Shown here piece by piece: positions 12,267-44,943 of a stretch of DNA of 45,917 bases (positions are counted from its first letter, which is position 1; each line of letters begins with the position of its first letter). The stretch is taken from the NCBI GenBank assembly GCA_017645585.1, contig JAGCOF010000028.1:1-45917 (forward strand), read 5' to 3'. The notes under the pieces are model-generated. The model saw nothing but the letters and a program-made list of their open reading frames with translations. It was not told where the DNA came from and made no database searches. The translations under genes were made by a program, and so were the position numbers. Source of the DNA: Bacteroidales bacterium (GTDB lineage Bacteria > Bacteroidota > Bacteroidia > Bacteroidales > P3).

Positions 12267-14369
12267 ATGGAAAACCCACAAATAGAGTTGGCGCGGCGGT
12301 ATGTGGAGCAGACGGGTGTGTCGGTGTTCCTGACCGGCAAGGCGGGGACGGGCAAGACGACCTTCCTGCGCGAGATAGACCGCACCACGACGAAACGCCA
12401 CGTGGTAGTGGCACCCACAGGTGTGGCGGCCATCAATGCCGGCGGCGTGACCATCCACAGCTTCTTCCAGCTGCCCTTCGACCCCTACCTGCCCGACGTG
12501 AAGGAGCTGGTGACGGAATACCAGATGCCCGAACGATACAAGTCGCTCAGCAAGAACAAAATGAATATCATCCGCACGCTGGAGCTGCTCATCATCGACG
12601 AGATTTCGATGGTGCGTGCCGACCTGCTGGATGCCATCGACATGACCCTGCGGCGGGCCCGTCGCAGCAGCCGTCCCTTCGGCGGCGTGCAGTTGCTGAT
12701 GATTGGCGACGTGCACCAGCTGTCGCCCGTGGTCACCGAGGCCGAGCGACCCTACATGGAGCAGGTCTACCCCACCCCTTACTTCTTCGCCAGCAAGGCG
12801 TTGCAGCAGCTGCCCTATGTTACTATTGAGCTCACCACCGTCTACCGCCAGCAGGACGCGGCCTTTGTAGAACTACTGAACCATGTGAGGGATAACAACA
12901 TTGACGCAGCCACGTTGCAGGCCCTCAACGCCCGCGTACAAAATACTCAAGCAATCACACAATCACACAATCAAGCAATCACTTTGGCGACCCACAACCG
13001 GCAGGCCGACGCCATCAACCGCCGCCATATGGAGGCCCTACAGGGCGAACGGCGTCTGTTCGAGGCCGTGCTCAAGGGCAACTACCCCGAGAAGGCGCTG
13101 CCCTGCGACCGCACGCTGGAGGTGAAGGTGGGCGAGCGCGTGATGTTCGTCAAGAACGACACTTCGGGCGCCAAACGCTACTACAACGGCATGCTGGGCA
13201 CTGTCACCGGCTACCTCTACGACAGCGAAGAAGACAAAGAGTATATTGAGGTGATCAACGACGACGGCGACACCATCGCTGTGAGGCGTGAGACGTGGGA
13301 GAGCCTGAAATACATTCTCGACGAGAAGACCAACGAGATTGTGCAGGAGGTGGAGGGCACCTTCAGCCAATACCCCCTGCAGGCGGCCTGGGCGGTGACC
13401 ATCCACAAGGCGCAGGGTTTGACCTTCGACCGTGTGGTGATCGACGCCGCCGACGCCTTCGCTTTCGGGCAGGTATATGTGGCTCTGAGCCGCTGCCGCA
13501 CCCTCGAGGGGCTGACGCTGTCGACACCGTTGAGCGCCGGCGTGGCCTTCGACGACGCGGCGGTGCACCGTTTCGTGGAGGCGCAGCCCTCCTTCGAGCA
13601 GACCGCCGACGCGGCGCCGCGCCACGAGCAACAATACCGCCTAGAGAAGCTGATGGAGCTGTTCAGCACCGACGACCTGCTACACGACGCCGAGCGCTTG
13701 CAGGAGCGCTACGACAAGTTGAAAAGCCTCTACCCCGACAACGTGGAGCGCCTGCGGCAGCTGACCCACTCGCTGGCCGACCTGCAGGGCGTCAGCGAGC
13801 GCTTCAAGGTGCAGCTGATGCAACTCGACGAGGCCGCGCAGCGTGAACGTGCGCAGAAAGGAGCCGCCTACTACCGCAGTCAGCTGCAAGCCGCCAAGCA
13901 TGCCTATGGCGCGCTGCTCGACGTGGAGATTGACAACAAGGAGGTAGCCAAAAGCGTGCGCGAGGCCGGCGAGCAGCTGACCGAAAGTCTGGGGCTGAAG
14001 TTGGCCTGCCTCGAGGCGGTGGAGAAGCATGGCTACAGCGTAGCCACCGTGCAGAAGGCCAAAGCCGACCACCTGATAGAAGGGAAAAAGGAAAAAGGGA
14101 AAGGGAAAAAGAAAAGAGTGGACAAAGAGCCGAAGGCCGACCTCGTCGAACTGCTGCGCCGGTGGCGCGCCGCGAAGGCCAAAGAGGAGGGTATTGCCAC
14201 CTATATGGTGCTGCAACAGAAGGCCGTGCTGGCCATCGCCGCCGCCATGCCGCGGACCCCTGCCGAACTGATGCAGCTGAACGGCATCGGCGACAAGACC
14301 GTAGAGAAATACGGCAAGGAATTGCTCGACCTGGTGGCCGACTTCCGCGAAAGCGGACAGGGGTGGTAG
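12267..14369 (+). CDS. PIF1/RecD-like SF1 helicase with C-terminal HRDC-like domain
   Basis: With the start at 12267 the protein has 700 residues. Walker A GKAGTGKT is at 24-31, Walker B LLIIDEIS near 110-117, the GDVHQLSP motif near 150, and the late SF1 motif TIHKAQGLTFD from residue 378 with VALSRC shortly after. This is the PIF1-like helicase-primase relative widespread in Bacteroidota, an ATP-driven DNA unwinding enzyme. The end (about 630-699) resembles an HRDC nucleic-acid-binding domain. Two in-frame repeat-word tracts interrupt it, at 12947-12982 (QAITQSHNQAIT) and 14079-14120 (Lys-Gly-rich). A promoter precedes it. Confidence 0.88.
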   Translation: MENPQIELARRYVEQTGVSVFLTGKAGTGKTTFLREIDRTTTKRHVVVAPTGVAAINAGGVTIHSFFQLPFDPYLPDVKELVTEYQMPERYKSLSKNKMNIIRTLELLIIDEISMVRADLLDAIDMTLRRARRSSRPFGGVQLLMIGDVHQLSPVVTEAERPYMEQVYPTPYFFASKALQQLPYVTIELTTVYRQQDAAFVELLNHVRDNNIDAATLQALNARVQNTQAITQSHNQAITLATHNRQADAINRRHMEALQGERRLFEAVLKGNYPEKALPCDRTLEVKVGERVMFVKNDTSGAKRYYNGMLGTVTGYLYDSEEDKEYIEVINDDGDTIAVRRETWESLKYILDEKTNEIVQEVEGTFSQYPLQAAWAVTIHKAQGLTFDRVVIDAADAFAFGQVYVALSRCRTLEGLTLSTPLSAGVAFDDAAVHRFVEAQPSFEQTADAAPRHEQQYRLEKLMELFSTDDLLHDAERLQERYDKLKSLYPDNVERLRQLTHSLADLQGVSERFKVQLMQLDEAAQRERAQKGAAYYRSQLQAAKHAYGALLDVEIDNKEVAKSVREAGEQLTESLGLKLACLEAVEKHGYSVATVQKAKADHLIEGKKEKGKGKKKRVDKEPKADLVELLRRWRAAKAKEEGIATYMVLQQKAVLAIAAAMPRTPAELMQLNGIGDKTVEKYGKELLDLVADFRESGQGW
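12947..12982 (+). repeat. In-frame 8-bp word array in the helicase
   Basis: The array is TCAAGCAA, TCACACAA, TCACACAA, TCAAGCAA, TCAC. It encodes Gln/Ile/Thr/Ser/His residues between conserved helicase motifs and keeps the frame. Confidence 0.8.
14079..14120 (+). repeat. In-frame purine tract in the helicase
   Basis: A GGGAAAAA-like run with a roughly 7-bp period encodes a Lys/Gly/Glu-rich linker ahead of the HRDC-like domain. Confidence 0.6.
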
Positions 14370-14376
14370 AAAATAT

Positions 14377-14409
14377 TTTGGCCATGTCGGGAAAAGTGCG
14401 TATCTTTGC
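14377..14409 (+). promoter_or_regulatory. Promoter of the M13 peptidase gene
   Basis: TTTG at 14377-14380, 20 bp, then TATCTTTGC at 14401-14409, a full match. It begins 8 bp after the helicase stop, so the peptidase and the genes after it start a new transcription unit. Confidence 0.85.
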
Positions 14410-14445
14410 ACCTCGTTTTGAAAGTAATTATTAATAAAAAACAAT

Positions 14446-16503: not shown

Positions 16504-16517
16504 ACACAACAACAAAC

Positions 16518-19688: not shown

Positions 19689-19689
19689 C

Positions 19690-20424: not shown

Positions 20425-20429
20425 CAACC

Positions 20430-20819
20430 ATGAAAGCAAAGTTAATCATATTGGCGGCCGCCCTGTTGGCACTCTGTTCCGGATGTTGGGACCTGACTGA
20501 TTATACCGTCAAAGGGTATCTCTATACCGACAGCACGCTCGAAGTGCCCCTAACCAATGCCACCTTGTGCTTTTTCCGTGACGGCAACTCTATTGGGACA
20601 GCCGAGACCGACAGTATTGGCCGCTGGGGGCTGTGGTACAATTACTACGGCAAGGAATCTTACGATATGTACCACAATTCCAAGCTTTCAATGGCCGAAT
20701 GGAAAATGTTAATCACCTATGAAGGTGACACTCTTTATTGCCATTACGGGCACAATTTTCCAGGGGACACCCTTGTACTTTACCCAGGCATTACATGGCA
20801 TCAAAATAATTGGAAATAA
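20430..20819 (+). CDS. Small hypothetical lipoprotein
   Basis: The start at 20430, 5 bp after the rhomboid stop, gives 129 residues. [20 protein letters not shown] is a lipoprotein signal with lipobox CSGC. The mature part looks like a short beta-sandwich of the carboxypeptidase-regulatory type (VKGYLYTD...[13 protein letters not shown]), a frequent shape for small Bacteroidota lipoproteins. It is more AT-rich than rhomboid and valS on either side, so it may be a later entry into the operon. Function unknown. Confidence 0.7.
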
Positions 20820-20830
20820 AAATTATCATA

Positions 20831-23512: not shown

Positions 23513-23533
23513 ACACAGAATACCTGAAACAGA

Positions 23534-23557
23534 GGCGCCCGCCGAATGGCGGGCGCC
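23534..23557 (+). terminator. Strong terminator after valS
   Basis: A perfect 10-bp stem GGCGCCCGCC / GGCGGGCGCC with loop GAAT is followed by GCATTTATTTC. It lies between convergent genes and can also serve the minus-strand gene ending at 23576. Confidence 0.9.
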
Positions 23558-23575
23558 GCATTTATTTCATTCACC

Positions 23576-24549: not shown

Positions 24550-24877
24550 ATAAATCTCTCCAAAAAATATATCGTGCACGACATAAATGGGTTGTCGATG
24601 GTCGGTTTTCGGTGGTCGGTGGCCGGTGGAGGTGGGAAAAGATGCCGATGGAGGTATTATGGCGTTGAGTATATAACTAATTATCAATCAGTATTATACA
24701 ACTAAACTATATTTAAGTAACTGAAAATCAACACCAACAGTACACCACCTCCGACTGTGGTCCGACTCAAGTCCGAGTATGGTCCGACTTTTGTCCGATT
24801 TTAGTCGGACATGACACGGTGTTGGTACGGTGTATACACGGTGTCGATACGAATAGGTCGTGCACGACCTATTTAGG
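24546..24877. repeat. Intergenic repeat element, copy B (inverted)
   Basis: The element fills the gap between the DUF4268-type gene and folC. End motifs TATCGTGCACGAC (24570-24582) and AGGTCGTGCACGACCTAT (24855-24872) share the palindrome of copy A. Relative to A and C the whole element is inverted: the TCGGA array (24749-24810) and the CACCGT units (about 24811-24846) read on the minus strand, and the 7-bp units (24594-24635, GTCGGTG-like) lie at the opposite end. The inner ATAATACTGATTGA (minus strand) is nearly shared with copy C. No gene is visible inside. Confidence 0.75.
24749..24810 (-). repeat. 11-bp-period TCGGA array, copy B
   Basis: Read on the minus strand the units are TCCGACTAAAA, TCGGACAAAAG, TCGGACCATAC, TCGGACTTGAG, TCGGACCACAG and TCGGAG. 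The TTGAC unit found in A and C is missing. Confidence 0.85.
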
Positions 24878-24882
24878 TTTTA

Positions 24883-26208
24883 TTAAGCGAGGGCGTCGGC
24901 GACGAGGAAGATGCTGCCGGTGACGAGGACGAGGTCCTGCGGGTCGGCGGCGGCACGGGCGGCGGCAATGGCGTCCTTGACATTGGGATAGGCGTCGCCT
25001 TCGATGCCAAGCTCACGGGCGGCAGCCTGCAGGTCGGCCACAGGGAGGCCGCGCGGCACGGAGGGCTGGCTGAAATAAAACGAAAAGTGAAAATTGAAAA
25101 GTGAAAATTGTGAGACGAGGAACTGCAGGATATGGTTATAGTCTTTGTCGTTGACGCAGCCGTAGACGACGTGGAGGTGCGATTGGCCGAGTAACTCCGG
25201 CAGCTTGCCGAGCATGGCGCGGATGCCGGGTTCGTTGTGGGCCGTCTCGCAGATGGTGAGGGGCTCGGTGCCGATGGTCTGCCAGCGGCCCTGCAGGTGG
25301 GTGTTGGTGACGACACGGGCGAGACCAAGCTTGATTGCGTTAGTGTTTAATTGCGTTAATGCGTTAGTGTTTAATGCGTCAGCACTTGCACAATAACGCA
25401 TTAACACATTGACACATTCCAAAACGGTGGCGATGTTTTTCTTCTGGTATTCGCCGGTCAATTGCTCGGTGTAGTCCTCGATGCGGTCGACATGGTAGTG
25501 TTCGTCGGCGAAGGTGATGGGTGCGTGGCGCTCGGCGGCGATGGCGCGGAAGACGGGCGCGGTCTCGGGCTGGGTCTCCCCTATCACGACGGGCACATGG
25601 GGCTTGATGATGCCGGCTTTCTCACGGGCTATCTTCTCCAGCGTGTCGCCGAGGAACTGCGTGTGGTCGAGGCCGATGTTGGTGATGACGCTGAGAAGCG
25701 GCGTGATGACATTGGTGCTGTCGAGGCGGCCACCCATGCCGACCTCGATGACGGCGATGTCGACCTGCTCGCGGGCGAAGTAGTCGAAGGCCAGGCCGAC
25801 GGTCATCTCGAAGAAGGAGAGGTGGGATATTGCGTTATTGTGGGATTGCGTTATTGCGTTAGTGGCTGGCGCGTCAGCATTAACGCAATCAATGAAGCGA
25901 ACCACTTCCGCTTCGGGGATCATCTCGCCGTTTATTCTAATTCTTTCGCGGAAGTCGACAAGGTGGGGCGAGGTGTAGAGGCCCACTTTGTAGCCCGCCT
26001 CCTGGAGGATGGAGGCCAGCATGTGGCTGACGGAGCCCTTGCCATTGGTGCCGGCCACGTGGATGGAGCGGAAGCGGCGCTCGGGATGGCCGAGGGCCTC
26101 CATCAGGTCGAGGGTGGGCTGCAGGTCAGCCTTATAAGCGGCAGCGCCGATGCGGTGGTACATCGGCAGCTGCGCATACATGAAGTCAAGTGTCTCTTGA
26201 TAGGTCAC
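24883..26208 (-). CDS. folC: Folylpolyglutamate synthase / dihydrofolate synthase
   Basis: The protein has 441 residues. It joins glutamate to dihydropteroate or folate in folate biosynthesis, in the cytoplasm. The ATP-binding GTNGKGS is at 53-59, SPHL follows near 81, and VIEVGMGGRLDSTN near 152-166. Three in-frame repeat-word tracts interrupt conserved regions: 25829-25890, 25334-25413 and 25072-25114, encoding runs such as TNAITQSHNNAIS and SLFNFHFSFYF. Even so the frame is open and the catalytic motifs are intact, so I call it functional. It is the last gene of a minus-strand run starting at 32597. Confidence 0.95.
   Translation of the reverse strand: MTYQETLDFMYAQLPMYHRIGAAAYKADLQPTLDLMEALGHPERRFRSIHVAGTNGKGSVSHMLASILQEAGYKVGLYTSPHLVDFRERIRINGEMIPEAEVVRFIDCVNADAPATNAITQSHNNAISHLSFFEMTVGLAFDYFAREQVDIAVIEVGMGGRLDSTNVITPLLSVITNIGLDHTQFLGDTLEKIAREKAGIIKPHVPVVIGETQPETAPVFRAIAAERHAPITFADEHYHVDRIEDYTEQLTGEYQKKNIATVLECVNVLMRYCASADALNTNALTQLNTNAIKLGLARVVTNTHLQGRWQTIGTEPLTICETAHNEPGIRAMLGKLPELLGQSHLHVVYGCVNDKDYNHILQFLVSQFSLFNFHFSFYFSQPSVPRGLPVADLQAAARELGIEGDAYPNVKDAIAAARAAADPQDLVLVTGSIFLVADALA
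25072..25114 (-). repeat. In-frame 7-bp word array in folC (third tract)
   Basis: On the plus strand the units are GAAAAGT, GAAAATT, GAAAAGT, GAAAATT with ragged ends. The minus strand encodes a Phe/Ser-rich run inside the C-terminal domain. Confidence 0.75.
25334..25413 (-). repeat. In-frame 8-bp word array in folC (second tract)
   Basis: Ten consecutive 8-bp steps, read on the plus strand, include ATTGCGTT, AGTGTTTA, AATGCGTT and GCATTAAC. The 17-mer TAACGCATTAACACATT at 25394-25410 also occurs in the non-coding leader at 39525-39541. Confidence 0.82.
25829..25890 (-). repeat. In-frame 8-bp word array in folC (first tract)
   Basis: Units on the plus strand include ATTGCGTT (three times), ATTGTGGG, AGTGGCTG and GCATTAAC in 8-bp register. 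It encodes the region between residues 106 and 126. Confidence 0.8.
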
Positions 26209-26224
26209 GGGAGGGGGGATGGGG

Positions 26225-26320
26225 TTGATAGGTTGATAAGTTAATGGGTTGATAGGTTAAAGGGTTGATAGGTTGATAAGTTAAAGGGTTGATAGGTTGA
26301 TAAGTTAAAGGGTTGATAGG
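26225..26320. repeat. Twelve-unit 8-bp intergenic array
   Basis: Exactly 96 bp made of twelve 8-bp units drawn from four words: TTGATAGG, TTGATAAG, TTAATGGG and TTAAAGGG. The order shows a 24-bp higher-order repeat. It lies between the barrel gene stop and the folC start, so it forms the folC leader in the transcript. Confidence 0.92.
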
Positions 26321-26328
26321 TCTTTTTA

Positions 26329-32666: not shown

Positions 32667-33016
32667 GCAAAATACATCGTGCACGATATAATTCGCCAGC
32701 CACCTGACAACATCGTGATGACACCGTATCGACACCGTATCATCTCCGACCAAAATCGGACAAAAGTCGGACCATACTCGGAGTTGACTCGGACTTGAGT
32801 CGGACATGATGGGTATTTGAGATTGATTTTCAAAGACTTAAACATTATTTAATTATATAACACTGATTGACTGCACCTTATAAAACATAAGTATTGAGAC
32901 GTGAGACATTAGAGAATTTTCCGTCATACCTCTCACGTCTCACCTCTCACATCTAAAACAACCACCGATTTCTTATTTATATCGTGCACGACCTATTTTT
33001 CGGACACTATTTTTCA
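32667..33016. repeat. Intergenic repeat element, copy C
   Basis: The element lies between divergent genes, the thioredoxin-fold gene and aspA. Ends carry ATCGTGCACGAT (32676-32687) and TATCGTGCACGACCTAT (about 32980-32996), with flank TTTTTCGGACACTATTTTTC close to that of copy A. It holds two GACACCGTATC units (about 32719-32741), the 11-bp TCGGA array (32745-32805) and 7-bp words (TGAGACG near 32895, ACCTCTC/ACGTCTC near 32928-32948) that can pair as a hairpin. No gene is visible. Confidence 0.75.
32745..32805 (+). repeat. 11-bp-period TCGGA array, copy C
   Basis: Units are TCCGACCAAAA, TCGGACAAAAG, TCGGACCATAC, TCGGAGTTGAC, TCGGACTTGAG and TCGGAC. The CACAG unit seen in copies A and B is missing. 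Confidence 0.85.
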
Positions 33017-33056
33017 ACCGAAGAAGGATTTCTTTCCACGTGTTGGATTTTTTTCG

Positions 33057-33065: not shown

Positions 33066-33094
33066 AAAATTATTAAAGAATTCAAATTGTAATA

Positions 33095-34507: not shown

Positions 34508-35847
34508 CAGAGACAATCAAGATAAAGAAGGGCCTGGACATACCGCTGGACGGCGCTGCCGAACGGCACATTGTCGACGCCCGCACGATAGAGCGCTACG
34601 CGGTGAAGCCTCCGGATGTGGTGGGCTTCATGCCGCGGTTGCTCGTTGCCGAGGGCGACACGGTCACGGCCGGTCAGCCCCTGGTGGCCGACAAGCACGA
34701 CCCACGCCTCACCCTCCCCTCACCCGTCAGCGGCACCGTGGAGGCCATTGTCCGCGGCGAGAAACGCAAGCTGATGGAGGTGGTGGTGGTAGGTGAAAGG
34801 TTAAAGGTTAAAGGTGAGACAACGCAAGTTTCACCTCTCACCTCTCACCTCTCACCTCAAAGTCCTGTTTGGTGGATGCTCAAAGAGCGCCCCTTCGGCA
34901 CCATCGCCAACCCCGACCATCAGCCCAAGGGCATCTATATCAGCCTGCGCGACACCAACCCGCTGGCGCCGGATTTGGAGTTTGCGTTGCAAGGACGCGA
35001 GCACGAGTTCGAGGCCGGCGTGAAGGCGCTGGAGGCGTTTGCTCCCGTGCACTGCGTGAGGGCCGAGGGCCCCCACCCTGCCGGCAACATCGGCACCATC
35101 GTCGCCGCCCTCGACCCCATCAACAAGGGCGAGTGTGTGTGGACGGTCAACGCGCAGGATGTGGCCAACATCGGCCGCTGGTGCCTCACGGGCGAATACC
35201 GACCCGAGCGCGTCGTGGCCGTCGGCGGCCCTGCAGCCAAAGCACCGCACTACTACCGCCTGCTCTGCGGTGCCTGCCTGCAACGCATCTGCGACACGCA
35301 GCTAATAGATACTAGTTATCCTAGCCTGGCTAGCCCGACTATCCTGACTAGTCCCATTCGTATCATCTCCGGCAGCGTGCTCTCTGGCACACAGATAACT
35401 GCCAACGGCTTCCTGGGCATGTATGACCAGCAGGTGTGCCTCATCGAGGAAGGCGACCAATACGACTTCATGGGCTGGCTGATGCCCGGCTTGAAGAAGT
35501 ACAGCTTCAGCTATACTTTCCTCAGCGGGATGTTGAGGCCGTTCAAGGCTCTTGAGCCCATGATGCCAATAAAGCCCACCTACTCCTTCAACACCAACGT
35601 GCACGGGTCGGTGAGACCGTTCCTGTTTACGGGCTCGTTCGAGCGGGTGTTCCCATTCGACATCTATCCGCTGCAACTCATCAAGGCCTGCATTGTGGGC
35701 GACGTGGAACTGCAGGAGAAATTGGGCATCTACGAGGTTGAGCCGGAAGATTTCGCGTTGTGCGAGTTCATCGACCCCTCGAAGACCGAGATACAGACCA
35801 TCATCCGCGAGGCCCTCGAGGTCCTCAGAAAGGAGGCTACCGCATGA
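34504..35847 (+). CDS. nqrA: Na+-translocating NADH:quinone reductase subunit A
   Basis: The protein has 447 residues. NqrA is the soluble cytoplasmic subunit of the Na+-NQR complex and lies close to the quinone site. The start IKIKKGLDIPLDGAAERHI is typical, and LTLPSPVSGTVEAIVRGEKR is the biotinyl-lipoyl-like fold segment. Two in-frame repeat-word tracts are present: 34791-34859 (7-bp words, residues about 96-119) and 35297-35350 (9-bp words, residues about 265-283). It overlaps aspA and nqrB by four bases each. Confidence 0.95.
   Translation: MTETIKIKKGLDIPLDGAAERHIVDARTIERYAVKPPDVVGFMPRLLVAEGDTVTAGQPLVADKHDPRLTLPSPVSGTVEAIVRGEKRKLMEVVVVGERLKVKGETTQVSPLTSHLSPQSPVWWMLKERPFGTIANPDHQPKGIYISLRDTNPLAPDLEFALQGREHEFEAGVKALEAFAPVHCVRAEGPHPAGNIGTIVAALDPINKGECVWTVNAQDVANIGRWCLTGEYRPERVVAVGGPAAKAPHYYRLLCGACLQRICDTQLIDTSYPSLASPTILTSPIRIISGSVLSGTQITANGFLGMYDQQVCLIEEGDQYDFMGWLMPGLKKYSFSYTFLSGMLRPFKALEPMMPIKPTYSFNTNVHGSVRPFLFTGSFERVFPFDIYPLQLIKACIVGDVELQEKLGIYEVEPEDFALCEFIDPSKTEIQTIIREALEVLRKEATA
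34791..34859 (+). repeat. In-frame paired 7-bp word arrays in nqrA
   Basis: Four units (AGGTGAA, AGGTTAA twice, AGGTGAG) are followed by 13 bases and four units of CACCTCT or CACCTCA. The two halves are complementary, so the mRNA could fold here. Confidence 0.85.
35297..35350 (+). repeat. In-frame 9-bp word array in nqrA
   Basis: Six 9-bp units all end in CTA, for example TAGATACTA, GTTATCCTA, GCCTGGCTA and GCCCGACTA. They encode a Ser/Pro/Thr-rich run. Confidence 0.85.
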
Positions 35848-37007
35848 ACATGAAATGGTTAGAAGATTGGTTTGAGAAGATTGAGCCCAAGGGCAAGTGG
35901 AGTTGGTTGGGAAGCACCTACGAGGCGTTCCACACCTTCGCCTTCACGCCCAAGACAGTGACCAAGAGCGGAAGCCATATCCGCGACGCGGTGGACATGA
36001 AACGATCCATAATCATCGTGGTCATTGCGCTAATGCCCGCCTTGCTGTTCGGCATGTGGAACATCGGCTACCAGCACTATATGTCCGTCGGAACACTTTC
36101 CACTTTCAGCTTTCCACTTTTCACTTGCTTCTGGTTCGGCTTCCTGCGGATGCTGCCACTCATCGTGGTGAGTTATGCCGTGGGCCTGTTCATTGAGTTT
36201 GCTTTCGCCCAGGTACGACACCATGAAGTCAATGAGGGCTTTCTTGCCACAGGTCTGTTGATACCGATGATTGTGCCTGTCACCACACCGCTGTGGCAGC
36301 TGGCGCTGGCCGTGGCCTTCGCCGTTATTATCGGCAAGGAAGTCTTCGGTGGCAGCGGAATGAACTTCCTCAACCCCGCCTTGGTGGCGCGCGCCGTCCT
36401 CTTCTTCGCCTACCCCACCCACATGAGTGGCGACAAGGTGTGGATTGCCGCCGACCTCTGGGGCAGCGACGCCATCGCCGGCGCCACACCCATGGGCGAT
36501 CTGGCCGCAGGCATGCGCCCATCGGCTTCAGCATTGGATATGCTTATCGGCACCATCCCCGGCAGCACCTGCGAAACTTCGTTTATTGCCATCGCACTTG
36601 GTGCAATACTCTTACTAATGACCGGCATCGCCTCATGGCGCATCATGCTGAGCGTGTTCCTCGGCGGCGGCGCGATGGGTCTACTTTTCAATTTACTTTA
36701 CACTATCAACTTTCCACTTTCGACTTATCTAGAGTTGACGTTCTACTATCATTTCCTGATGGGCGGCTTCGCCTTCGGCGCGGTCTTCATGGCCACCGAC
36801 CCCGTCACCGCCGCTCAGACCAACACCGGCAAGTGGATATACGGCCTGCTGATAGGCGCCTTCGCCGTGCTGCTGCGCGTCTGCAACCCCGCCTACCCCG
36901 AGGGCATGATGCTCAGCATCCTCTTCATGAACTGCATGGCCCCGCTGATTGACCACTGCGTGGTGGCCCGTAACATCAAGATGAGAGAAAGGAGGGCCGT
37001 GAAATGA
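35844..37007 (+). CDS. nqrB: Na+-NQR subunit B
   Basis: The ATG at 35844 overlaps the nqrA stop and is preceded by AGGAGG at 35830-35835, so this start is well supported; 387 residues. NqrB is a membrane subunit with a covalently bound FMN. The attachment threonine is Thr215 in AGATPMGD. About ten membrane helices are visible. Two Phe/Ser/Thr-rich stretches, at 36092-36128 and 36681-36730, are made of CTTTCCA-like words and lie in loops or helix ends. Confidence 0.95.
   Translation: MNMKWLEDWFEKIEPKGKWSWLGSTYEAFHTFAFTPKTVTKSGSHIRDAVDMKRSIIIVVIALMPALLFGMWNIGYQHYMSVGTLSTFSFPLFTCFWFGFLRMLPLIVVSYAVGLFIEFAFAQVRHHEVNEGFLATGLLIPMIVPVTTPLWQLALAVAFAVIIGKEVFGGSGMNFLNPALVARAVLFFAYPTHMSGDKVWIAADLWGSDAIAGATPMGDLAAGMRPSASALDMLIGTIPGSTCETSFIAIALGAILLLMTGIASWRIMLSVFLGGGAMGLLFNLLYTINFPLSTYLELTFYYHFLMGGFAFGAVFMATDPVTAAQTNTGKWIYGLLIGAFAVLLRVCNPAYPEGMMLSILFMNCMAPLIDHCVVARNIKMRERRAVK
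36092..36128 (+). repeat. In-frame 7-bp word array in nqrB
   Basis: Words ACTTTCC, ACTTTCA, GCTTTCC and ACTTTTC in 7-bp register encode TLSTFSFPLFT. A similar but looser tract is at 36681-36730. Confidence 0.7.
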
Positions 37008-37627
37008 AAAAGACCTTCAGCAACACCTATATCTTCATCTACTCGGCGGTGCTCGTCGTGGTGGCAGCCTTGATACTCACGGTTGTCAGCGTGAGCCTCA
37101 AACCCCTGCAGACCAAGAACCAGCAGGCCGAGCAGAAGCAGATGATACTGAAGACCATCGGCGTCGACGCCACACGCGACAACGCCGCGGAGCTCTACGC
37201 CAAGCATATCACCGAAGCCGACGGCTACTACACCTTCGACGGCGGCGTCATCATCCCCCTGAAAGGCACCGGCCTCTGGGGGCCCATCTGGGGCTATCTG
37301 GCGCTGGACGAGAGTAGCACCGTCGTCGGTGCCGTCTTTGACCACAAGGGTGAGACCCCTGGCCTCGGCGGCGAGATTGCCACCGACAAGTTCGCCCAGC
37401 GCTTCATCGGCAAGAAGATGGACACCCAAGCTATCCACCTGGCCAAGAACGCCGACCACAGCAACCCCTACGAGGTGGACGCCATCAGCGGCGGCACCAT
37501 GACCAGCAACGGTGTCACCGCCATGTTGGCCAAAGCCTTCGAGGACTACAAAGGATTATCTAGTAACTCTAGAATATCTAGTTCATCTAGAGATACTAGC
37601 AATACCAGAGAGGAGGTCCAACTATGA
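37004..37627 (+). CDS. nqrC: Na+-NQR subunit C
   Basis: The protein has 207 residues with one N-terminal membrane helix. NqrC carries a covalent FMN on a threonine; here Thr165 in SGGTMTSNGV fits the (S)GxTxT pattern. It overlaps nqrB and nqrD by four bases each. The C-terminal 20 residues (about 184-203, SSNSRISSSSRDTSNTR) come from a 9-bp word array and look like an added tail. Confidence 0.95.
   Translation: MKKTFSNTYIFIYSAVLVVVAALILTVVSVSLKPLQTKNQQAEQKQMILKTIGVDATRDNAAELYAKHITEADGYYTFDGGVIIPLKGTGLWGPIWGYLALDESSTVVGAVFDHKGETPGLGGEIATDKFAQRFIGKKMDTQAIHLAKNADHSNPYEVDAISGGTMTSNGVTAMLAKAFEDYKGLSSNSRISSSSRDTSNTREEVQL
37554..37607 (+). repeat. In-frame 9-bp word array at the nqrC end
   Basis: Six 9-bp units, nearly all of the form GnnnnnCTA (GATTATCTA, GTAACTCTA, GAATATCTA, GTTCATCTA, GAGATACTA, GCAATACCA). 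It has the same length and style as the array in nqrA. Confidence 0.85.
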
Positions 37628-38241
37628 AAAACTTTGACCTCATAAAACTCCCCTTCAGCAAGAACAACCCCATACTGGTGCAGGTGCTGGGCGTATGCTC
37701 TTGCCTGGCGGTGACGGCGCAGCTCAAGCCCGCTGTGGTGATGGCCCTGAGCGTCACCGTCGTGGTGACGCTGGCCAACCTCATCGTATCGCTGCTGCGC
37801 AACACCATCCCGCCGCGCATCCGCATCATCGTGCAGCTCGTCGTCGTCTCCACCCTCGTGGTGCTCGTCGACCAGGTGCTGAAAGCCTACGTCTACGACG
37901 TCAGCAAGCAGCTCTCGGTCTTCGTGGGCCTCATCATCACCAACTGCATCGTCATGGGCCGTCTCGAGGCTTTCGCCATGGTGCAGAAACCATGGGCGAG
38001 CTTCCTCGACGGACTCGGCAACGGACTCGGCTACAGCGTCATCCTTATAGTCCTCGGCTTCGTCCGCGAACTCTTCGGCAGCGGCACCCTCTGGGGCTAC
38101 CCCGTCATGGAGAAGCTCGGCCTCTACAGCATTGGCTACGAGAACAACGGCCTGATGATCATGCCCCCCATGGCCCTCATCCTTGTCGGCCTCATCATCT
38201 GGGCACATAGAAGTAAAAACAAAGACCTTTGCGAGCAATGA
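37624..38241 (+). CDS. nqrD: Na+-NQR subunit D
   Basis: The protein has 205 residues with six membrane helices. NqrD pairs with NqrE and they share an iron site within the membrane, held by cysteines such as that in GVCSCLAVTAQL (near residue 25) and that in TNCIVMGRLEAF. It overlaps nqrC, and its stop overlaps the start of the following thioredoxin-like gene rather than nqrE, which is displaced 2.8 kb. Confidence 0.95.
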   Translation: MKNFDLIKLPFSKNNPILVQVLGVCSCLAVTAQLKPAVVMALSVTVVVTLANLIVSLLRNTIPPRIRIIVQLVVVSTLVVLVDQVLKAYVYDVSKQLSVFVGLIITNCIVMGRLEAFAMVQKPWASFLDGLGNGLGYSVILIVLGFVRELFGSGTLWGYPVMEKLGLYSIGYENNGLMIMPPMALILVGLIIWAHRSKNKDLCEQ

Positions 38242-39515
38242 AACAGTCCAAAAACATATTCTGCCTTCTTCGATCCTTCTATGATCCTTCGGCGATCCTT
38301 CGGCGAACACCACTCCTCGCATTTCTCGTGGTGAGCACCTTCACCGTCCACGCCCAAAACGGTGACGAGGCCAGAAGTGTCATCCGCCTCTCGCGTGATA
38401 AATGCCAGTCCATCGAGAGCGGGCATTATGTGGTGGAGTGGAAGCAGAAGTTCATGTCGGGCAACGATACAAGCTTCACACGCCAGACCTGCGATTTCCG
38501 CAAAGCACCGGCAGACACCATCTTCGGTATGCACTTTGCCATGCATGAGGTGTGGCCCGATGATGGCGAGACTTCCCACGCTCTGTACACGGGCGACGAA
38601 TTAGTGTATTCCTACGACGACAGCACAGGCACCGTCATGTCCTGTAGCCAATGGACCGACAAGATAATCCGCATCTGCCACAACTTTCAGTTCTACAACG
38701 CATTGACCAACCCGAGTTGCTATCCGCTGCCGAAAGAGGAGCAACTCGCCGACAGTGCCTACACTTTCACTCTCACGGAAACCATGCTCGGCAAGAGGCC
38801 GTGCTACCTTGTGGACATGCTGCAGGTGCCAAACGAGGAGGTGATGGGCATGCGCTTCATCCGCTATGAAGTGCGCCTGTGGATTGACAAGCAGGATTAC
38901 CTTCCCATGCGCTACACAATAGCATACGACGCTGTGCAGGGCCGCGACACGCTATGTCAGTTTGATGACTGCCTGCTGGTGGATTTCAGTCCGGATGTGG
39001 ACAGCGCCAACTTGACCATTCAGTCGTTCCCCAGCAAGGTGGCGCTGATTGACTACACACCGGATGAGCCTACGGAACCGCTGGCCGAGGGGACGCTGGC
39101 ACCCGAGTGGTCACTGCCCTCGCTGACGGGCGATACCGTGCGCCTTGCCGACCTTCGGGGCATAGTGGTGCTGCTCGACTTCTTCTACAAAAGCTGTGCC
39201 CCCTGTTGCGCCGCGTTGCCAGGGCTGCAAAGCCTGCACGAAAAGTACAAAGACCGCGGCTTCGTGATGATTGGCATCGACCCCTACGACGACCCCGAGA
39301 AGGCAGCGATGGCCGACTTCCTTGCCAAGCGCGACATCACCTACACGGTGCTCTTCTCCGACCGCGACCTGCCGGCAGCCTACCATGTACGAGCCTTCCC
39401 CACCCTATTCTTCATCGACCGCGATGGCAAGATTGCCAAAGTGCAACGAGGCTACCTCAAAACTCTCGAGGAATCCGTCGAAGAACAACTACAAAAAATG
39501 CTTCAATCCAAATAA
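38238..39515 (+). CDS. TlpA-like secreted thiol-disulfide protein inside the nqr operon
   Basis: The start at 38238 overlaps the nqrD stop (ATGA), giving 425 residues. The hydrophobic signal segment LLAFLVVSTFTVHAQ is preceded by an unusually long N-region (residues 12-23) made from three 11-bp repeats of GATCCTTC at 38272, 38283 and 38294. The first 270 residues are a beta-rich domain. The end is a thioredoxin fold with CAPC at Cys320 and Cys323 and a cis-Pro FPTLFF. It is not a usual nqr gene, so it is cargo, yet it is translationally coupled to nqrD. Confidence 0.88.
   Translation: MKQSKNIFCLLRSFYDPSAILRRTPLLAFLVVSTFTVHAQNGDEARSVIRLSRDKCQSIESGHYVVEWKQKFMSGNDTSFTRQTCDFRKAPADTIFGMHFAMHEVWPDDGETSHALYTGDELVYSYDDSTGTVMSCSQWTDKIIRICHNFQFYNALTNPSCYPLPKEEQLADSAYTFTLTETMLGKRPCYLVDMLQVPNEEVMGMRFIRYEVRLWIDKQDYLPMRYTIAYDAVQGRDTLCQFDDCLLVDFSPDVDSANLTIQSFPSKVALIDYTPDEPTEPLAEGTLAPEWSLPSLTGDTVRLADLRGIVVLLDFFYKSCAPCCAALPGLQSLHEKYKDRGFVMIGIDPYDDPEKAAMADFLAKRDITYTVLFSDRDLPAAYHVRAFPTLFFIDRDGKIAKVQRGYLKTLEESVEEQLQKMLQSK
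38272..38304 (+). repeat. Three 11-bp repeats in a signal-peptide region
   Basis: GATCCTTCTAT, GATCCTTCGGC, GATCCTTCGGC in exact 11-bp steps; 33 bp, hence in frame. Confidence 0.85.
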
Positions 39516-39526
39516 CCGCCACACTA

Positions 39527-39602
39527 ACGCATTAACACATTCACGCATTATAGATTATGTACTACATTAACATATTCATCAAGTTGATATTCGTCGACAA
39601 CA
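39527..39602 (+). pseudogene. nqrE 5'-end fragment (duplicate stub) with leader
   Basis: These 76 bp match 41006-41081 with two mismatches. They contain 30 bp of leader, an ATG at 39557 and 15 nqrE codons with two amino-acid changes (Asp to Tyr, Ser to Leu). After 39602 the match stops, and the frame runs into unrelated sequence to a stop at 39667. The stub sits where nqrE would begin if the ATPase gene had not been inserted. Confidence 0.9.
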
Positions 39603-39656
39603 CAAACAATATGCTGTCACAAACTATGAGCACATCAGTATACACTCGTACCATTC

Positions 39657-39690
39657 ATAATGGATAAAAAGAAGAAATTTTATCCATTAT
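39657..39690. promoter_or_regulatory. 13-bp inverted repeat upstream of the ATPase promoter
   Basis: ATAATGGATAAAA at 39657-39669 and TTTTATCCATTAT at 39678-39690 are perfect inverted repeats with an 8-base loop. They end three bases before the -33 box of the ATPase promoter. This fits an operator, or a terminator for upstream transcription; the sequence alone does not decide. Confidence 0.6.
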
Positions 39691-39693
39691 ACA

Positions 39694-39724
39694 TTGTCGA
39701 AATGAATAAAAATCGTATATTTGC
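39694..39724 (+). promoter_or_regulatory. Promoter of the ATPase gene
   Basis: TTG at 39694-39696, 19 bp, then TATATTTGC at 39716-39724. Both boxes fit, so the inserted ATPase has its own promoter. Confidence 0.75.
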
Positions 39725-39742
39725 AGTCAAAGTATTATCGCC

Positions 39743-40984
39743 ATGAAGAATGTAATATTGACACAACGCGCTGAACGAGACACTATTGTGTCTCGTCCAT
39801 ACATCGACCGCAAGACGAAATATCAGACTGCTGAGATACTGAAGAGTCCTCTGATAAAGCTGATTACCGGGCCGCGCAGGGCTGGAAAATCGGTGTTTGC
39901 ATTGCTTATGCTCAAAAACCACAATTTTGCCTATCTCAATTTCGACGACAAACAACTGCTCGAAAAATGGGATGACGAACTTGTGGAAAAAACACTCGAA
40001 GAAGTATATCCGAGCTATGAATACTTGATGCTTGATGAGGTGCAGAACTTACCGGGCTGGGATTTATGGGTAAGCAAACTGTACCGCAACGGCAAGAATA
40101 TTGTCATCACAGGCAGTAACGCCAACATGCTGTCGAGCGAGATGGCCACAGTACTCACTGGCCGATATCTGCAAATCGAGATGTTGCCTTTCAGCTTGGC
40201 CGAAGTGCTGGCAACAAACAAAATCGACATAGCCTCCATCGAAAAAGAGCAGCAAACTCGTGCAAACCTTCTCGTGGATGACTATCTACGCAACGGAGGA
40301 TTCCCAGAATCGGTGTTGGCTCGCGGCATCACAAAGAACTACCTCTCTACACTCTTCGACTCCATTCTACTGAAAGATGTGGCCCAAAGACACCACATCA
40401 GAAAAACCACCGACCTTTACAGCCTGGCCACCTATCTGCTTTCCAACTTTTGCAATCCTTTTTCGGCCAACGACCTCGCCGAGGAGTTGAACATTGCAAG
40501 TGTCACCACAACAAAAAAGTACTGCGACTACCTCAACGAGCCGTACCTCTTCTTCTTTTTGCCACGATTCAACAACAAACTGAAACTGATGGCCAAAGCT
40601 GACCGCAAAGCCTACATTGTCGACAACGGCTTCGTCCAATCGTCAGCATTCAATCTGAGCGACAACCTGGGTCGTCTGTTGGAGAACCAAGTGTTTGTGG
40701 AGCTGCTGCGGAAGGGGTATGTGCCTGGGCAGACACTGTTTTACTATCGTTCTCGCAACAACCGCGAAGTCGACTTCGTCACCCGGAAAGGGCCAAAAGT
40801 CGAACGTCTGATACAAGTGTCGTACAGTCTCGATTCGGCAAAAACTCGCAAACGTGAAATAAGCGCCCTTGTCGAGTGTGGTGACGAGTTGAAATGCGAC
40901 GACCTGAGTATTGTGACCTTCTCTGAGAAAGAAACGTTAACCGACCCCATCCCCATTACGGTCATCCCTATTACCGAATTATGA
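39743..40984 (+). CDS. AAA+ ATPase with DUF4143 domain (inserted cargo)
   Basis: The protein has 413 residues. Walker A GPRRAGKS is at 43-50 and Walker B LMLDEVQN at 95-102; GSNANML (sensor) follows. The C-terminal part, including NNREVDFVTRKG with a D-x-V nuclease-like strand, is DUF4143. These stand-alone ATPases are abundant in Bacteroidota; their function is not established. The gene lies between the two nqrE 5' ends, so it is the cargo of that insertion. It has its own promoter and probably reads through into nqrE. Confidence 0.88.
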   Translation: MKNVILTQRAERDTIVSRPYIDRKTKYQTAEILKSPLIKLITGPRRAGKSVFALLMLKNHNFAYLNFDDKQLLEKWDDELVEKTLEEVYPSYEYLMLDEVQNLPGWDLWVSKLYRNGKNIVITGSNANMLSSEMATVLTGRYLQIEMLPFSLAEVLATNKIDIASIEKEQQTRANLLVDDYLRNGGFPESVLARGITKNYLSTLFDSILLKDVAQRHHIRKTTDLYSLATYLLSNFCNPFSANDLAEELNIASVTTTKKYCDYLNEPYLFFFLPRFNNKLKLMAKADRKAYIVDNGFVQSSAFNLSDNLGRLLENQVFVELLRKGYVPGQTLFYYRSRNNREVDFVTRKGPKVERLIQVSYSLDSAKTRKREISALVECGDELKCDDLSIVTFSEKETLTDPIPITVIPITEL

Positions 40985-41005
40985 TAATAACACACTAACA
41001 CATTC

Positions 41006-41081
41006 ACGCATTAACACATTCACGCATTATAGATTATGGACTACATTAACATATTCATCAAGTCGATATTCGTCGACAACA
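41006..41081 (+). repeat. Direct repeat, nqrE 5' end, intact copy
   Basis: This is the partner of 39527-39602. The leader part belongs to an 8-bp word array at 40989-41028 (AACACACT, AACACATT, CACGCATT, AACACATT, CACGCATT) that ends 7 bp before the nqrE ATG. Confidence 0.9.
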
Positions 41082-41650
41082 TGATCTTCGCCTTCTTCCT
41101 CGGCATGTGCTCCTACTTAGCCGTGAGCAAGACGGTGAAGACCTCGGCGGGCCTCGGCATCGCGGTCACCTTTGTGCTGCTTATCACCGTGCCCATCAAC
41201 TACCTGCTGAACAAATACTTCCTCGCCGAAGGTGCATTGGCATGGATTTCGCCCTCGCTGGCCGAGGTGGACCTCAGCTTCCTGAGCCTCATCATGTTCA
41301 TCGCCGTCATTGCGGCCATCGTGCAGATGGTGGAGATGATTGTGGAGAAGTTCAGCCCCGCGCTCTACAACTCACTGGGCATCTTCCTTCCGCTCATCGC
41401 CGTCAACTGCGCCGTCATGTCGGGCTCGCTCTTCATGCAGGAGCGCGGCTACGCCAATATCGGCGAGGCGACGGTCTTCGCCCTCGGCAGCGGCATCGGC
41501 TGGTTCCTGGCCATCGTGGCCATCGCCGCCATAAGGGAAAAACTGCGCTACAGCCACATCCCCCCGGCCCTGCGCGGCGTGGGCATCACCTTCATCATCA
41601 CCGGCCTCATGGGCCTGGCATTCATGTCATTTATGGGCTTCAAGTTATAA
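41036..41650 (+). CDS. nqrE: Na+-NQR subunit E
   Basis: The protein has 204 residues with six membrane helices and is the partner of NqrD. The cysteine of [12 protein letters not shown] and that of [11 protein letters not shown] fit the iron-binding positions. The start [15 protein letters not shown] aligns with the stub at 39557. It is separated from nqrD by the thioredoxin-like and ATPase genes, so its expression may depend on read-through or on the ATPase promoter. Confidence 0.95.
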
Positions 41651-41680
41651 TTGAAAATTGAGAAGGGAACCGGCGAAATA

Positions 41681-42526: not shown

Positions 42527-42562
42527 CACCATTGCCATATTAAAATTGAAATTCAAAGACCC

Positions 42563-43852: not shown

Positions 43853-43945
43853 CACCGACATAATAACTACAACAATAGTAGTTAAACAGAAAAAGAACGA
43901 CAGTTAAAGAGTAGAAACCAATACGGATAACATATACAACATATT
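43853..43945. other. Short gap before the fumarate reductase genes
   Basis: An AT-rich 93-bp gap with a weak 6-bp inverted repeat AACTAC / GTAGTT at 43865-43883. No matching -7 box is seen, so a separate promoter is not supported by sequence. Confidence 0.35.
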
Positions 43946-44905
43946 ATGAACTTACCGAAAATTCACTCCATCACAAAAAAGATCTGCGTGGCACTGCTGG
44001 GCGGCTTCCTGCTGGTGTTCCTGCTGTTCCACGCCACGGCCAACCTCTTCATCCTGCGACATGACGAGGGCGCATGGTACTCGGCTTTCTGCCACTTTAT
44101 GGGCACCAATTGGATTGTCAAGGCCTTTGAGATTGTGCTGCTCGGTGCCATCGTGCTGCACATCCTGCTGACGCTCTGGCTGGCGCTGACCAACCGGCTG
44201 GCACGTCCCACCCGCTATCATGAGCCGCAGAAGAGCAAGACCCACAGCACCTCGAAGCTGATGGTGTGGTCGGGCATCCTCATTTTCGTATGCCTCATCA
44301 TCCACTTCTGCGACTTCTACTTTGTCAAGCTCGGCTGGGTGAAGGGCGAATACATGGTGAAGACCGAAAAATTGCAGAGCGAGGAGGTGATGGGGCTGGT
44401 GCAGTTTGCCCAGCAGATGGAGATGACCCCTGAGGAGCTGGTCGACCAGCTGGAGGCCGAATCGGCCATGTATGCCGATGAAAACGGCGACGCCGAGGAG
44501 GTGGCCGAATATATTGGCAAGATGCGCGACCAACTGGCGGTAATCAACATCGTGCAACGCGCACAGATGGAGGGCAATATCACCGAGGACATGCAGTGGG
44601 TGCGCCATCTGACCTACGAGGAACGTCAGACGCTGAAGCGCGTGCTGCCCGAGAGCGATTCGGAACCCGACTTCTACTATATGGCACGCGAGAAGTTCAG
44701 CCACCTGCATATCGTCATCGGCTACCTCTTCTTCTTCTTCGTCATCTTTATGCACCTGCGCCATGCCTTCCCCTCGGCCTTCCAGACCCTGGGCCTCAAC
44801 AACTACAAGTACAACAACATCATCGAGGTGCTGGGCAAGATATACACGTGGCTCGTGGTGCTGATGTTCGCCATAGTGCCGATACTCGTTTACCTTGGCC
44901 TATAA
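43946..44905 (+). CDS. Fumarate reductase / succinate dehydrogenase cytochrome b subunit, enlarged
   Basis: The protein has 319 residues, longer than the roughly 230 usual for this Bacteroidota b-type subunit. It anchors the enzyme in the membrane, carries heme b and exchanges electrons with menaquinone. Heme ligands are among His28 (FLLFHATANL), the His in HILLTLWLAL, the His of LIIHFCDFYF and the His of MHLRHAFPSAFQ. The extra length is an acidic helical stretch between about residues 132 and 246 (YMVKTEKLQSEEVMGLVQF onward) between two helices. The next gene starts 35 bp on. Confidence 0.88.
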   Translation: MNLPKIHSITKKICVALLGGFLLVFLLFHATANLFILRHDEGAWYSAFCHFMGTNWIVKAFEIVLLGAIVLHILLTLWLALTNRLARPTRYHEPQKSKTHSTSKLMVWSGILIFVCLIIHFCDFYFVKLGWVKGEYMVKTEKLQSEEVMGLVQFAQQMEMTPEELVDQLEAESAMYADENGDAEEVAEYIGKMRDQLAVINIVQRAQMEGNITEDMQWVRHLTYEERQTLKRVLPESDSEPDFYYMAREKFSHLHIVIGYLFFFFVIFMHLRHAFPSAFQTLGLNNYKYNNIIEVLGKIYTWLVVLMFAIVPILVYLGL

Positions 44906-44911
44906 CCCATT

Positions 44912-44943
44912 ACGCATTAACGCAATAACACACTAACGCAATG
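44912..44943 (+). repeat. 8-bp word array running into the flavoprotein start codon
   Basis: ACGCATTA, ACGCAATA, ACACACTA, ACGCAATG in exact 8-bp register. The last unit contains the ATG start codon of the flavoprotein at 44941, so the word array takes the place of a ribosome-binding site. Confidence 0.85.

What the first reader, a model, noticed from the sequence alone, without database searches (positions are those of the whole stretch)
12947..44943. A vocabulary of fixed-period word arrays in coding and non-coding DNA
Many tracts are built from degenerate words of one fixed length: 8 bp (helicase, folC twice, 26225, nqrE leader, flavoprotein start), 7 bp (folC, nqrA, nqrB, elements), 9 bp (nqrA, nqrC) and 11 bp (thioredoxin-like gene, elements). 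They lie in frame inside conserved enzymes, in leaders and between genes. The 17-mer TAACGCATTAACACATT is in folC coding (25394) and in a leader (39525). Plain slippage makes uniform repeats; here words vary but length is kept.
Basis: seen in the sequence. Interest (0 to 1): 0.9.

Follow-up and report, generated by a model that had tools for sequence, protein, structure and literature searches.

The report
Two-ruler DNA word arrays in Bacteroidales
The genome of an uncultured gut bacterium is full of short DNA 'words' repeated at fixed spacings, chiefly seven letters (often inside spare parts of ordinary genes) and eleven letters (in mobile-looking hairpins upstream of genes); both resemble known kinds of bacterial repeats, but seven-letter words standing in place of protein-coding sequence, often with little change in length, are unusual.

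Summary
The tracts are real: arrays far exceed shuffles. But lengths are not spread evenly over 7-11. In window plus 19 unbiased stretches (364 kb) two rulers dominate: 7 bp, in and between genes, and 11 bp, mostly between genes; 8 is minor, 9 and 10 weak. In samples of five congeners 11 bp is in all five, 7 bp in three; ten other families of the order have almost none.

They are two kinds. The 11-bp words build dispersed, species-specific hairpin/MITE-like elements: GTTCTTCAACAGTTCTTCAA occurs 57 times here and in 0 of 58 congeners; closest known is BrickBuilt of Porphyromonas gingivalis. The 7-bp words form a dictionary shared between loci and species, recur at the same loops of FolC and NqrA with different words, and often replace rather than lengthen: net change zero in 18 of 63 arrays, near-full insertion in 9. 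Twelve of the 18 are FolC, and array-free variable segments behave alike, so slippage plus selection for length is not excluded.

Best reading: known heptamer repeats in a dense, gene-invading form, probably written by template-switch copying, plus an 11-bp-word MITE-like family. Some tracts of the finding (nqrC, several leaders) are weak.

The parts
12941..12984 (+). 8-bp word tract (CAATCACA) in the PIF1-like/HRDC helicase ORF 12210-14369
   Evidence: lag score 16, 0/200 local shuffles; Pfam
25076..25113 (-). 7-bp word tract in folC; encodes FLVSQFSLFNFHFS where the L007 orthologue has HLHAEFARLGKPFD, same length
25336..25418 (-). 8-bp word tract pair (TGCGTTAA words / inverted CACATTAA words around GCGTCAGC) in folC variable site A; contains the 17-mer at 25394
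25828..25895 (-). 8-bp word tract (TATTGCGT) with a short inverted partner around GCTGGCGCGTCAGC in folC, residues about 105-127; weak alone
   Evidence: 18/200 local shuffles; octamer; pLDDT below 50 at 113-117 and 120-122
26222..26321 (.). 8-bp word tract (GGTTGATA/AGTTAAAG) upstream of the folC start
34782..34865 (+). 7-bp words AGGTGAA/AGGTTAA and inverted CTCTCAC words in the NqrA linker; several other species carry other words here
35315..35360 (+). 9-bp words with CTAG in a second NqrA linker; weak alone, but the same linker shows CTAG 9-bp words in relatives L208, L214, L221 and L226
   Evidence: 10/200; read by eye
36094..36126 (+). 7-bp tract (CACTTTC) in nqrB
   Evidence: 3/200 local shuffles
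36691..36727 (+). 7-bp tract (ACTTTCC) in nqrB
   Evidence: 6/200 local shuffles
38264..38309 (+). 11-bp words at the 5' end of the thioredoxin-like ORF (start codon TTG at 38229 uncertain)
39518..39552 (.). 8-bp words in the leader of the DUF4143 ATPase gene, second window copy of the 17-mer at 39525; weak alone
   Evidence: 26/200
40988..41029 (.). 8-bp words (TAACACAT/TCACGCAT) in the leader of the 204-aa ORF 41036-41650 (nqrE by size and position only)
44908..44943 (.). 8-bp words (ACGCAATA) before the last ORF of the window; weak alone
   Evidence: 9/200
10558..10845 (.). MITE-like element between two TCGTGCACGA palindromes; 11-bp TCGGAC words and 7-bp ACCGACC words
24572..24867 (.). second element of the same kind (7-bp GGTGGTC end, 11-bp TCCGACTATGG and GGTGTNNNTAC words)
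32677..32991 (.). third element of the same kind, in a divergent intergenic region

Best explanation
Two independent repeat processes share this genome. (1) 7-bp words (8 and 9 bp as minor kin) are degenerate heptamer repeats of the long-simple-sequence-repeat kind. SHOWN: words are shared between loci and species of the genus; tracts recur with different words at the same tolerant loops of FolC and NqrA and in leaders; at FolC site A they stand in place of other sequence at unchanged length in most species seen. INFERRED: they are written as patches of several words by DNA-synthesis template switching (same strand at a 7-nt register; opposite strand where words form inverted pairs), not by step-by-step gain of one unit, which would shift the reading frame; selection keeps patches that are stop-free and fit the protein. 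They need no function. (2) 11-bp words are the arms of hairpin/MITE-like elements that multiply within a species and lie upstream of genes. SHOWN: dispersal with differing flanks, inverted ends, species-specific words, location. INFERRED: mobilisation in trans by an enzyme that recognises the repeated core.
For: Two rulers (fundamental periods): own unbiased 364 kb, noncoding 7:11, 8:4, 9:2, 10:4, 11:43; coding 7:18, 8:2, 9:3, 11:5, 6:3, 12:4; five congeners noncoding 7:19, 11:22, coding 7:20, 11:0. Dictionary. Replacement: L092 against L073 and L009 against L007 align through a folC heptamer tract with no gap (both are site A); FolC site A is 21 residues in 8 of 10 array-bearing and 9 of 13 array-free proteins; 63 arrays (antisense duplicates removed) against the nearest array-free orthologue: net 0 in 18, |d|<=2 in 28, insertion of at least 0.8 array in 9, summed net/array length 0.32. 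Stops per 100 bp in 40 coding 7/8-bp arrays: 0.81 and 0.98 in the two other sense frames, 2.8-2.9 antisense; 33 intergenic arrays 1.9-3.7 (the in-frame 0 is true by definition of an ORF). 11-bp: 57 copies of the 20-mer in G000, 0 in 58 congeners; 24 aligned copies with differing flanks; G029, G012 and G016 carry the GTTCTTC half-word with their own 4-nt spacers; inverted partner in 63 of 102 arrays against 8 in the control; 94 of 102 arrays intergenic; 52 of 125 gaps of 150-700 bp hold an element, convergent 2 of 16 (Fisher p=0.013).
Against: Length neutrality is not special: 33 array-free variable segments in the same protein pairs have net 0 in 11, arrays 18 of 63 (Fisher p=0.65); arrays are if anything longer (mean +3.44 against +1.15 residues, p=0.09). 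Zero cases are 12 of 27 in FolC, 5 of 22 in NqrA but 1 of 14 in all other genes (mean +3.93). FolC and NqrA loci were fetched because they bear arrays; some arrays share one segment and are not independent. L086 shows a plain expansion of +14 residues. Only 11 of 82 own 7/8-bp arrays have an inverted partner. Two of five congeners (G016, G029) show no 7-bp array in 80 kb each. More distant NqrA linkers without arrays are 31-40 residues, so that linker is not of fixed length. No transposase, target duplication or empty site was shown for the 11-bp elements. No close strains were available.
Confidence: 0.45

Rival explanations
1. Plain slipped-strand expansion of short seeds followed by point mutation, with selection keeping frame and protein length; no special writing step.
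For: Heptamers are reported as the most abundant class in most genomes rich in long simple repeats and ascribed to polymerase slippage (Mrazek et al. 2007 as summarised in PMC4679880, section read). L086 against L081 in folC shows a plain heptamer expansion, net +14 residues. Net length change of arrays is statistically like that of array-free variable segments, and outside FolC and NqrA 13 of 14 arrays change length.
Against: 7-bp units dominate inside genes (18 against 3 of period 9 in the unbiased own set), where single-unit steps shift the frame; at FolC site A tracts stand in place of unrelated sequence of equal length; identical words recur between loci about ten-fold and between species about five-fold over letter-shuffled words.
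Confidence: 0.33
2. In-frame mobile palindromic elements of the Rickettsia palindromic element type, inserted as units into loops of proteins.
For: NqrA and FolC tracts include inverted word pairs around a GC-rich core; two relatives carry other palindromic inserts in the same NqrA linker, 43 and 45 residues long (L218, L222).
Against: 71 of 82 own 7/8-bp arrays have no inverted partner at the threshold used; insertion of at least 0.8 array length in 9 of 63.
Confidence: 0.08
3. The arrays are binding sites: 7-, 8- and 11-bp tandem sites are what ribbon-helix-helix proteins use (recalled: omega heptads, MetJ boxes, ParR iterons), and the 11-bp cores upstream of genes are operators.
For: 11-bp elements are upstream of genes and scarce in convergent gaps; in 46 arms of 23 copies some positions are 93-100% conserved and others about 40%, and outer arms pair no better within a copy than when dealt among copies (0.657 against 0.656), as for sequence rather than structure recognition.
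Against: Conservation does not follow the 11-bp phase significantly (p=0.108); spacers and copy numbers are species-specific as for amplification; the tens of different 7-bp words in coding DNA do not suit one protein.
Confidence: 0.07
4. Reverse-transcriptase or hypermutation device (diversity-generating retroelement or telomerase-like repeat synthesis).
For: Length-keeping replacement and repeat addition at a fixed register would fit in form (inference; no call supports it).
Against: No RVT_1 match in G000 (83% complete), nor in G001, G002 and G023 (each 98% complete); 35 of 59 genomes lack one. G002 and G023 have 7-bp arrays; for G001 only the 11-bp half-word count is known.
Confidence: 0.02

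Closest known systems
Heptamer long simple sequence repeats (TAACTGA repeats of Beggiatoaceae, Cyanobacteria and some Bacteroidetes, PMC4679880; GGGNATC repeats of Xanthomonas and Nostoc, PMC4692102; degenerate heptamers of Nostoc, recalled)
   Same: tandem 7-bp units, genome-wide, sporadic by lineage; PMC4679880 also reports TAACTGA arrays inside ORFs, mostly hypothetical proteins (passage)
   Different: here 7-bp tracts sit in conserved enzymes such as FolC and NqrA, use tens of different words, and change words between species at the same loop
BrickBuilt, a minisatellite inside a MITE of Porphyromonas gingivalis (PMC4596501)
   Same: Bacteroidales, intergenic, species-restricted, dispersed, imperfect tandem units with conserved and variable positions, inverted-repeat ends
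   Different: 23-bp unit at 19 places there; 11-bp units in facing inverted arms here, several word families per genome
Rickettsia palindromic elements (known here from passages of PMC2996958 and recall)
   Same: palindromic coding sequence in loops of housekeeping proteins
   Different: most tracts here have no inverted partner and few are full-length insertions
Short template-switch mutations between inverted repeats (PMC8604942, yeast coding genes, abstract read; PMC8794818, start of abstract in a listing)
   Same: multi-nucleotide, in-place rewriting of coding DNA and homogenising of inverted arms
   Different: the yeast events replace up to five neighbouring residues; tracts here are about 25-40 bases or more with a tandem register

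Membership tests
Heptamer long simple sequence repeats | tandem units of 5-11 nt beyond chance | tested here: met
Heptamer long simple sequence repeats | heptamers the commonest class | tested here: inconclusive
   met in coding DNA of the unbiased own set (18, next 11 bp with 5); in noncoding DNA 11 bp leads (43 against 11)
Heptamer long simple sequence repeats | within genes, units that are multiples of 3 are the likeliest | tested here: not met
   coding 7:18 against 6:3, 9:3, 12:4
Heptamer long simple sequence repeats | unit number varies between strains | not testable with these tools
   one genome per species; the pair L081/L086 (90% identity over 6193 aligned bases) shows an expansion
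MITE (11-bp-word elements) | short, non-coding, many dispersed copies | tested here: met
   24 aligned copies with differing flanks, picked by their inner arms; 57 matches of the 20-mer genome-wide
MITE (11-bp-word elements) | terminal inverted repeats | tested here: met
   plurality consensus TGACTCC...GGAGTCA, not in every copy: left G and C at 14 and 12 of 23
MITE (11-bp-word elements) | target-site duplication and parent transposase | not tested
   no systematic test made
REP/RAYT | Y1 transposase in the genome | tested here: not met
   0 matches of PF01797 in G000 (83% complete); rings in 5 of 14 control genomes
Rickettsia palindromic elements | in-frame insertion of a palindromic unit | tested here: not met
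   11 of 82 own 7/8-bp arrays with inverted partner; insertion of at least 0.8 array length in 9 of 63
Diversity-generating retroelement | reverse transcriptase in the genome | tested here: not met

The most novel reading that the evidence does not exclude
A bacterial lineage in which a mutational process with a 7-nucleotide register prints patches of a fixed heptamer dictionary over existing coding and leader DNA in single, length-neutral steps, so that unrelated enzymes repeatedly acquire new loops written in the same words.
Probability: 0.2. Interest if true: 0.75.

Novelty: new variant of a known kind. Interest (0 to 1): 0.5.

Why it matters
Heptamer repeats are known in scattered bacteria and are ascribed to polymerase slippage. 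A genus where they enter conserved enzymes and change words between species at the same loop gives many natural replicates to ask how such repeats are written and why the unit is seven. The 11-bp elements separate by location and by species-specific vocabulary, and widen the minisatellite-in-MITE type beyond Porphyromonas.

Tried and rejected
Hairpin RNA or cruciform as the function of the 11-bp elements: outer arms pair no better within a copy than when dealt among 23 copies (0.657 against 0.656, max of 1000 deals 0.708); the inner arms were fixed by my own search pattern, so they say nothing. Terminator role: convergent gaps hold an element in only 2 of 16 cases. Core-plus-spacer phase test on 46 arms: p=0.108. 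GCGTCAGC as a general core of 7/8-bp tracts: 6 of 96 sites have an array on at least one side, 4 on both. Reverse transcriptase and RAYT: absent from this genome. Periods 9 and 10 as equal members: weak. My first net-length count (67 arrays, 19 zero) held four arrays read twice through antisense or other-frame ORFs; removes them (63, 18 zero) and is used here. First literature search was badly worded.

Papers: PMC4679880 introduction and passages; PMC4596501 abstract and one results section; PMC4692102 and PMC8604942 abstracts; PMC2996958 passages; others as search listings. Searches behind 'not found in print' for 7-bp tracts that replace enzyme loops or 11-bp-word hairpins in Bacteroidales: (open-access library only, top rows seen). 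No gene caller was at hand: coding labels come from my own codon-score ORF picker, which missed some window genes (nqrB among them) and fits foreign genomes poorly (coding fraction 0.64 and 0.41).
Full report
Setting. The window is contig C31 of a 1.93 Mb, 62-contig, 83% complete assembly. The best-matching named FolC records are Bacteroidales or Bacteroidetes assemblies, many from ruminant guts by their titles; no genus name was obtained. Of ten ORFs scanned against Pfam, nine match: PIF1/HRDC helicase, valyl-type tRNA synthetase, Mur-ligase domains (FolC), fumarase-type lyase, NqrA, NqrB, thioredoxin-like, AAA_14/DUF4143, and an Fer2/FAD/NAD flavoprotein (NqrF-like); one has none. nqrC, nqrD and nqrE are named by size and position only.

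The observation. A lag scan finds arrays of period 7 (7), 8 (2), 9 (1) and 11 (4) in the window and none in 40 shuffles. Of 17 tracts tested one by one, ten are never reached in 200 local shuffles, six are reached 3 to 26 times and the nqrC tract 188 times. The 17-mer occurs four times in the genome, reversed-order control 0. The tracts are real, some individual claims are weak, one fails.

Which lengths. In the unbiased own sample (window plus 19 stretches, 364 kb) the fundamental periods are, noncoding and coding: 6 (0, 3), 7 (11, 18), 8 (4, 2), 9 (2, 3), 10 (4, 0), 11 (43, 5), 12 (2, 4), and none at 4, 5 and 13. The coding fraction is 0.88, so 7-bp arrays are still denser outside genes. Five congeners (337 kb) give 7 (19, 20), 8 (10, 2), 9 (7, 6), 10 (3, 3), 11 (22, 0). 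By genome: 7-bp arrays in G002 (25), G036 (10), G023 (4), none in G016 and G029; 11-bp arrays in all five (4, 2, 5, 2, 9). Forty-one folC loci of related species, eight of them identical to loci fetched, give 7 (13, 18) and 11 (14, 1). Ten other families of the order (377 kb) give 7 (1, 0), 11 (0, 0) and five noncoding 10-bp arrays, all in G060; 39 folC loci of more distant organisms give 7 (5, 0) and 11 (0, 0). Two rulers, 7 and 11, thus mark this genus and its neighbours, with 8 and 9 as minor kin.

Two vocabularies. In the unbiased own sample 25 seven-bp arrays reduce to 16 words with 12 identical pairs against 1.16 for letter-shuffled words, and 36 eleven-bp arrays to 25 words with 15 against 0.08. 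With the biased stretches included, own 7-bp words are shared between species about as often as within (0.0125 to 0.041 of pairs against 0.032; letter-shuffled own x G002 0.0047), while 11-bp words are not shared outside the genome (0 of 1694 pairs). The comparison samples for 11 bp are small (4, 6 and 12 arrays).

The 11-bp elements. Of 102 own arrays of period 11, 94 are intergenic. Merged with other long hairpins they make 89 elements in divergent (29), tandem (24 and 19) and convergent (6) gaps, 8 called coding and 3 at edges; among gaps of 150-700 bp they occupy 21 of 42 divergent, 29 of 67 tandem and 2 of 16 convergent (Fisher p=0.013; biased stretches included). The unbiased sample has 22 long inverted repeats, 16 of them by my reading with arms of 11-bp words, one with 8-bp and one with 7-bp words; six of the sequences gave 4 real and 0 shuffled. 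One family is a hairpin of about 113 bp with plurality ends TGACTCC...GGAGTCA and differing flanks in 24 aligned copies. Its 20-mer core occurs 57 times here and in none of 58 congeners, yet the half-word GTTCTTC is kept with other 4-nt spacers elsewhere: GATT in G029, GGTT and GGCT in G012, AGTT and AGTC in G016. Every listed row but one of these three and of G000 has a 4-nt spacer (period 11); the listing was cut, and many of the 36 of 59 genomes with a match have only one to three, as the reversed control does. A second type lies between two TCGTGCACGA palindromes; in the samples ten pairs are 277-418 bp apart and three sites are single; the 18-bp palindrome pattern has 105 places here, 5 in G012 and 0 in 57 others. 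Three pairs are in the window. Outer arms of the first family do not covary. I read both as MITE-like; BrickBuilt of P. gingivalis is the nearest described in kind. Parent transposase, target duplications and empty sites were not shown.

The 7-bp tracts in genes. FolC has three tract-bearing places in the window; a predicted structure (mean pLDDT 86.1) puts two at low-confidence loops (near residues 113-122 and 277-281) and the third (about 367-376) at a helix-strand turn of high confidence. At FolC site A, 10 of 23 distinct proteins caught by my pattern carry an array, with about eight different words; 8 of the 10 and 9 of the 13 array-free proteins have 21 residues there. The encoded peptides (NSTFKIQNSEL, SKFKIQHSAL, SSFLIPHSSL, TSDFSIQTSDL) keep the spacing of hydrophobic residues of array-free FolC. 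In the NqrA linker, read by eye, species with 9-bp words have 27-39 residues, array-free close congeners 28-31, 7-bp tracts 30-38 (three are clear inverted pairs: 34, 37, 38), two other palindromic inserts 43 and 45, and more distant array-free members 31-40. DNA alignments of L092 with L073 and of L009 with L007 run through the site A tract without a gap; L086 against L081 shows a plain expansion. Over 63 arrays in 46 ORFs the net change against the nearest array-free orthologue is 0 in 18, within 2 residues in 28, negative in 10, and at least 0.8 of the array in 9. By gene: FolC 12 zero of 27, NqrA 5 of 22, others 1 of 14.

Control on that claim. Thirty-three variable segments without arrays in the same pairs have zero change in 11 and a mean of +1.15; arrays have a mean of +3.44 (p=0.09; zero share p=0.65). 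Arrays thus behave nearly like ordinary diverging segments in length, with a modest gain. This fits replacement, and also insertion or expansion followed by loss under selection for length.

Mechanism. Seven is not a multiple of three, so a tract in an essential gene cannot grow by single units without passing through frameshifts. I therefore prefer writing of several words at once by template switching, with selection removing stops (sense frames 0.8-1.0 stops per 100 bp off frame against 2.8-2.9 antisense in 40 coding arrays) and misfits. Shown: recurrence at the same loops, shared dictionary, replacement at equal length at FolC site A. Inferred: the copying mechanism, its 7-nt register, its template. 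The published idea for the heptamer preference (length contacted by the polymerase, Mrazek 2007 as summarised in PMC4679880) fits a polymerase origin. Reverse transcription is unlikely: no RVT_1 in this genome or in G001, G002 and G023.

Verdict. A real and dense phenomenon, a new variant of known kinds: gene-invading heptamer repeats plus 11-bp-word MITE-like elements. The most novel reading, one-step length-neutral printing of a heptamer dictionary, is not excluded and is testable with close strains.

Noticed in passing
window 10558-10845, 24572-24867, 32677-32991: Elements bounded by near-identical palindromes (TANNTCGTGCACGANNTA, 105 places in the genome), carrying 7-bp words near one end and 11-bp words near the other; could be cassettes of a site-specific recombinase.
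   Followed up: partly
L218 and L222 (nqrA linker): Different palindromic inserts (CCTCTCC...GGAGAGG type) in the same NqrA linker that holds word tracts in other species.
   Followed up: no
L145:16568-16874 (G002): A long tract of CCCTTAAA-like words whose period switches between 8 and 9 bp along its length, telomere-like in look.
   Followed up: no
L054:18866-18990 and L043:1055-1155: Long GGGGAGTGA-type 11-bp arrays (125 and 101 bp); the first runs to the contig end and may have broken the assembly.
   Followed up: no
folC 25376 and 25871; L044:19681; L054:2157; L200:7300; L190:4854: A GCGTCAGC/GCTGACGC octamer lies beside or between 7- or 8-bp word arrays at these six of 96 sites.
   Followed up: partly
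window 37624-41650: A thioredoxin-like gene and a DUF4143 ATPase gene lie between the presumed nqrD and nqrE, splitting the nqr cluster.
   Followed up: no
G060 sample (L183, L184): Five 10-bp arrays in 40 kb of a genome from another family that has one 7-bp and no 11-bp array there.
   Followed up: no
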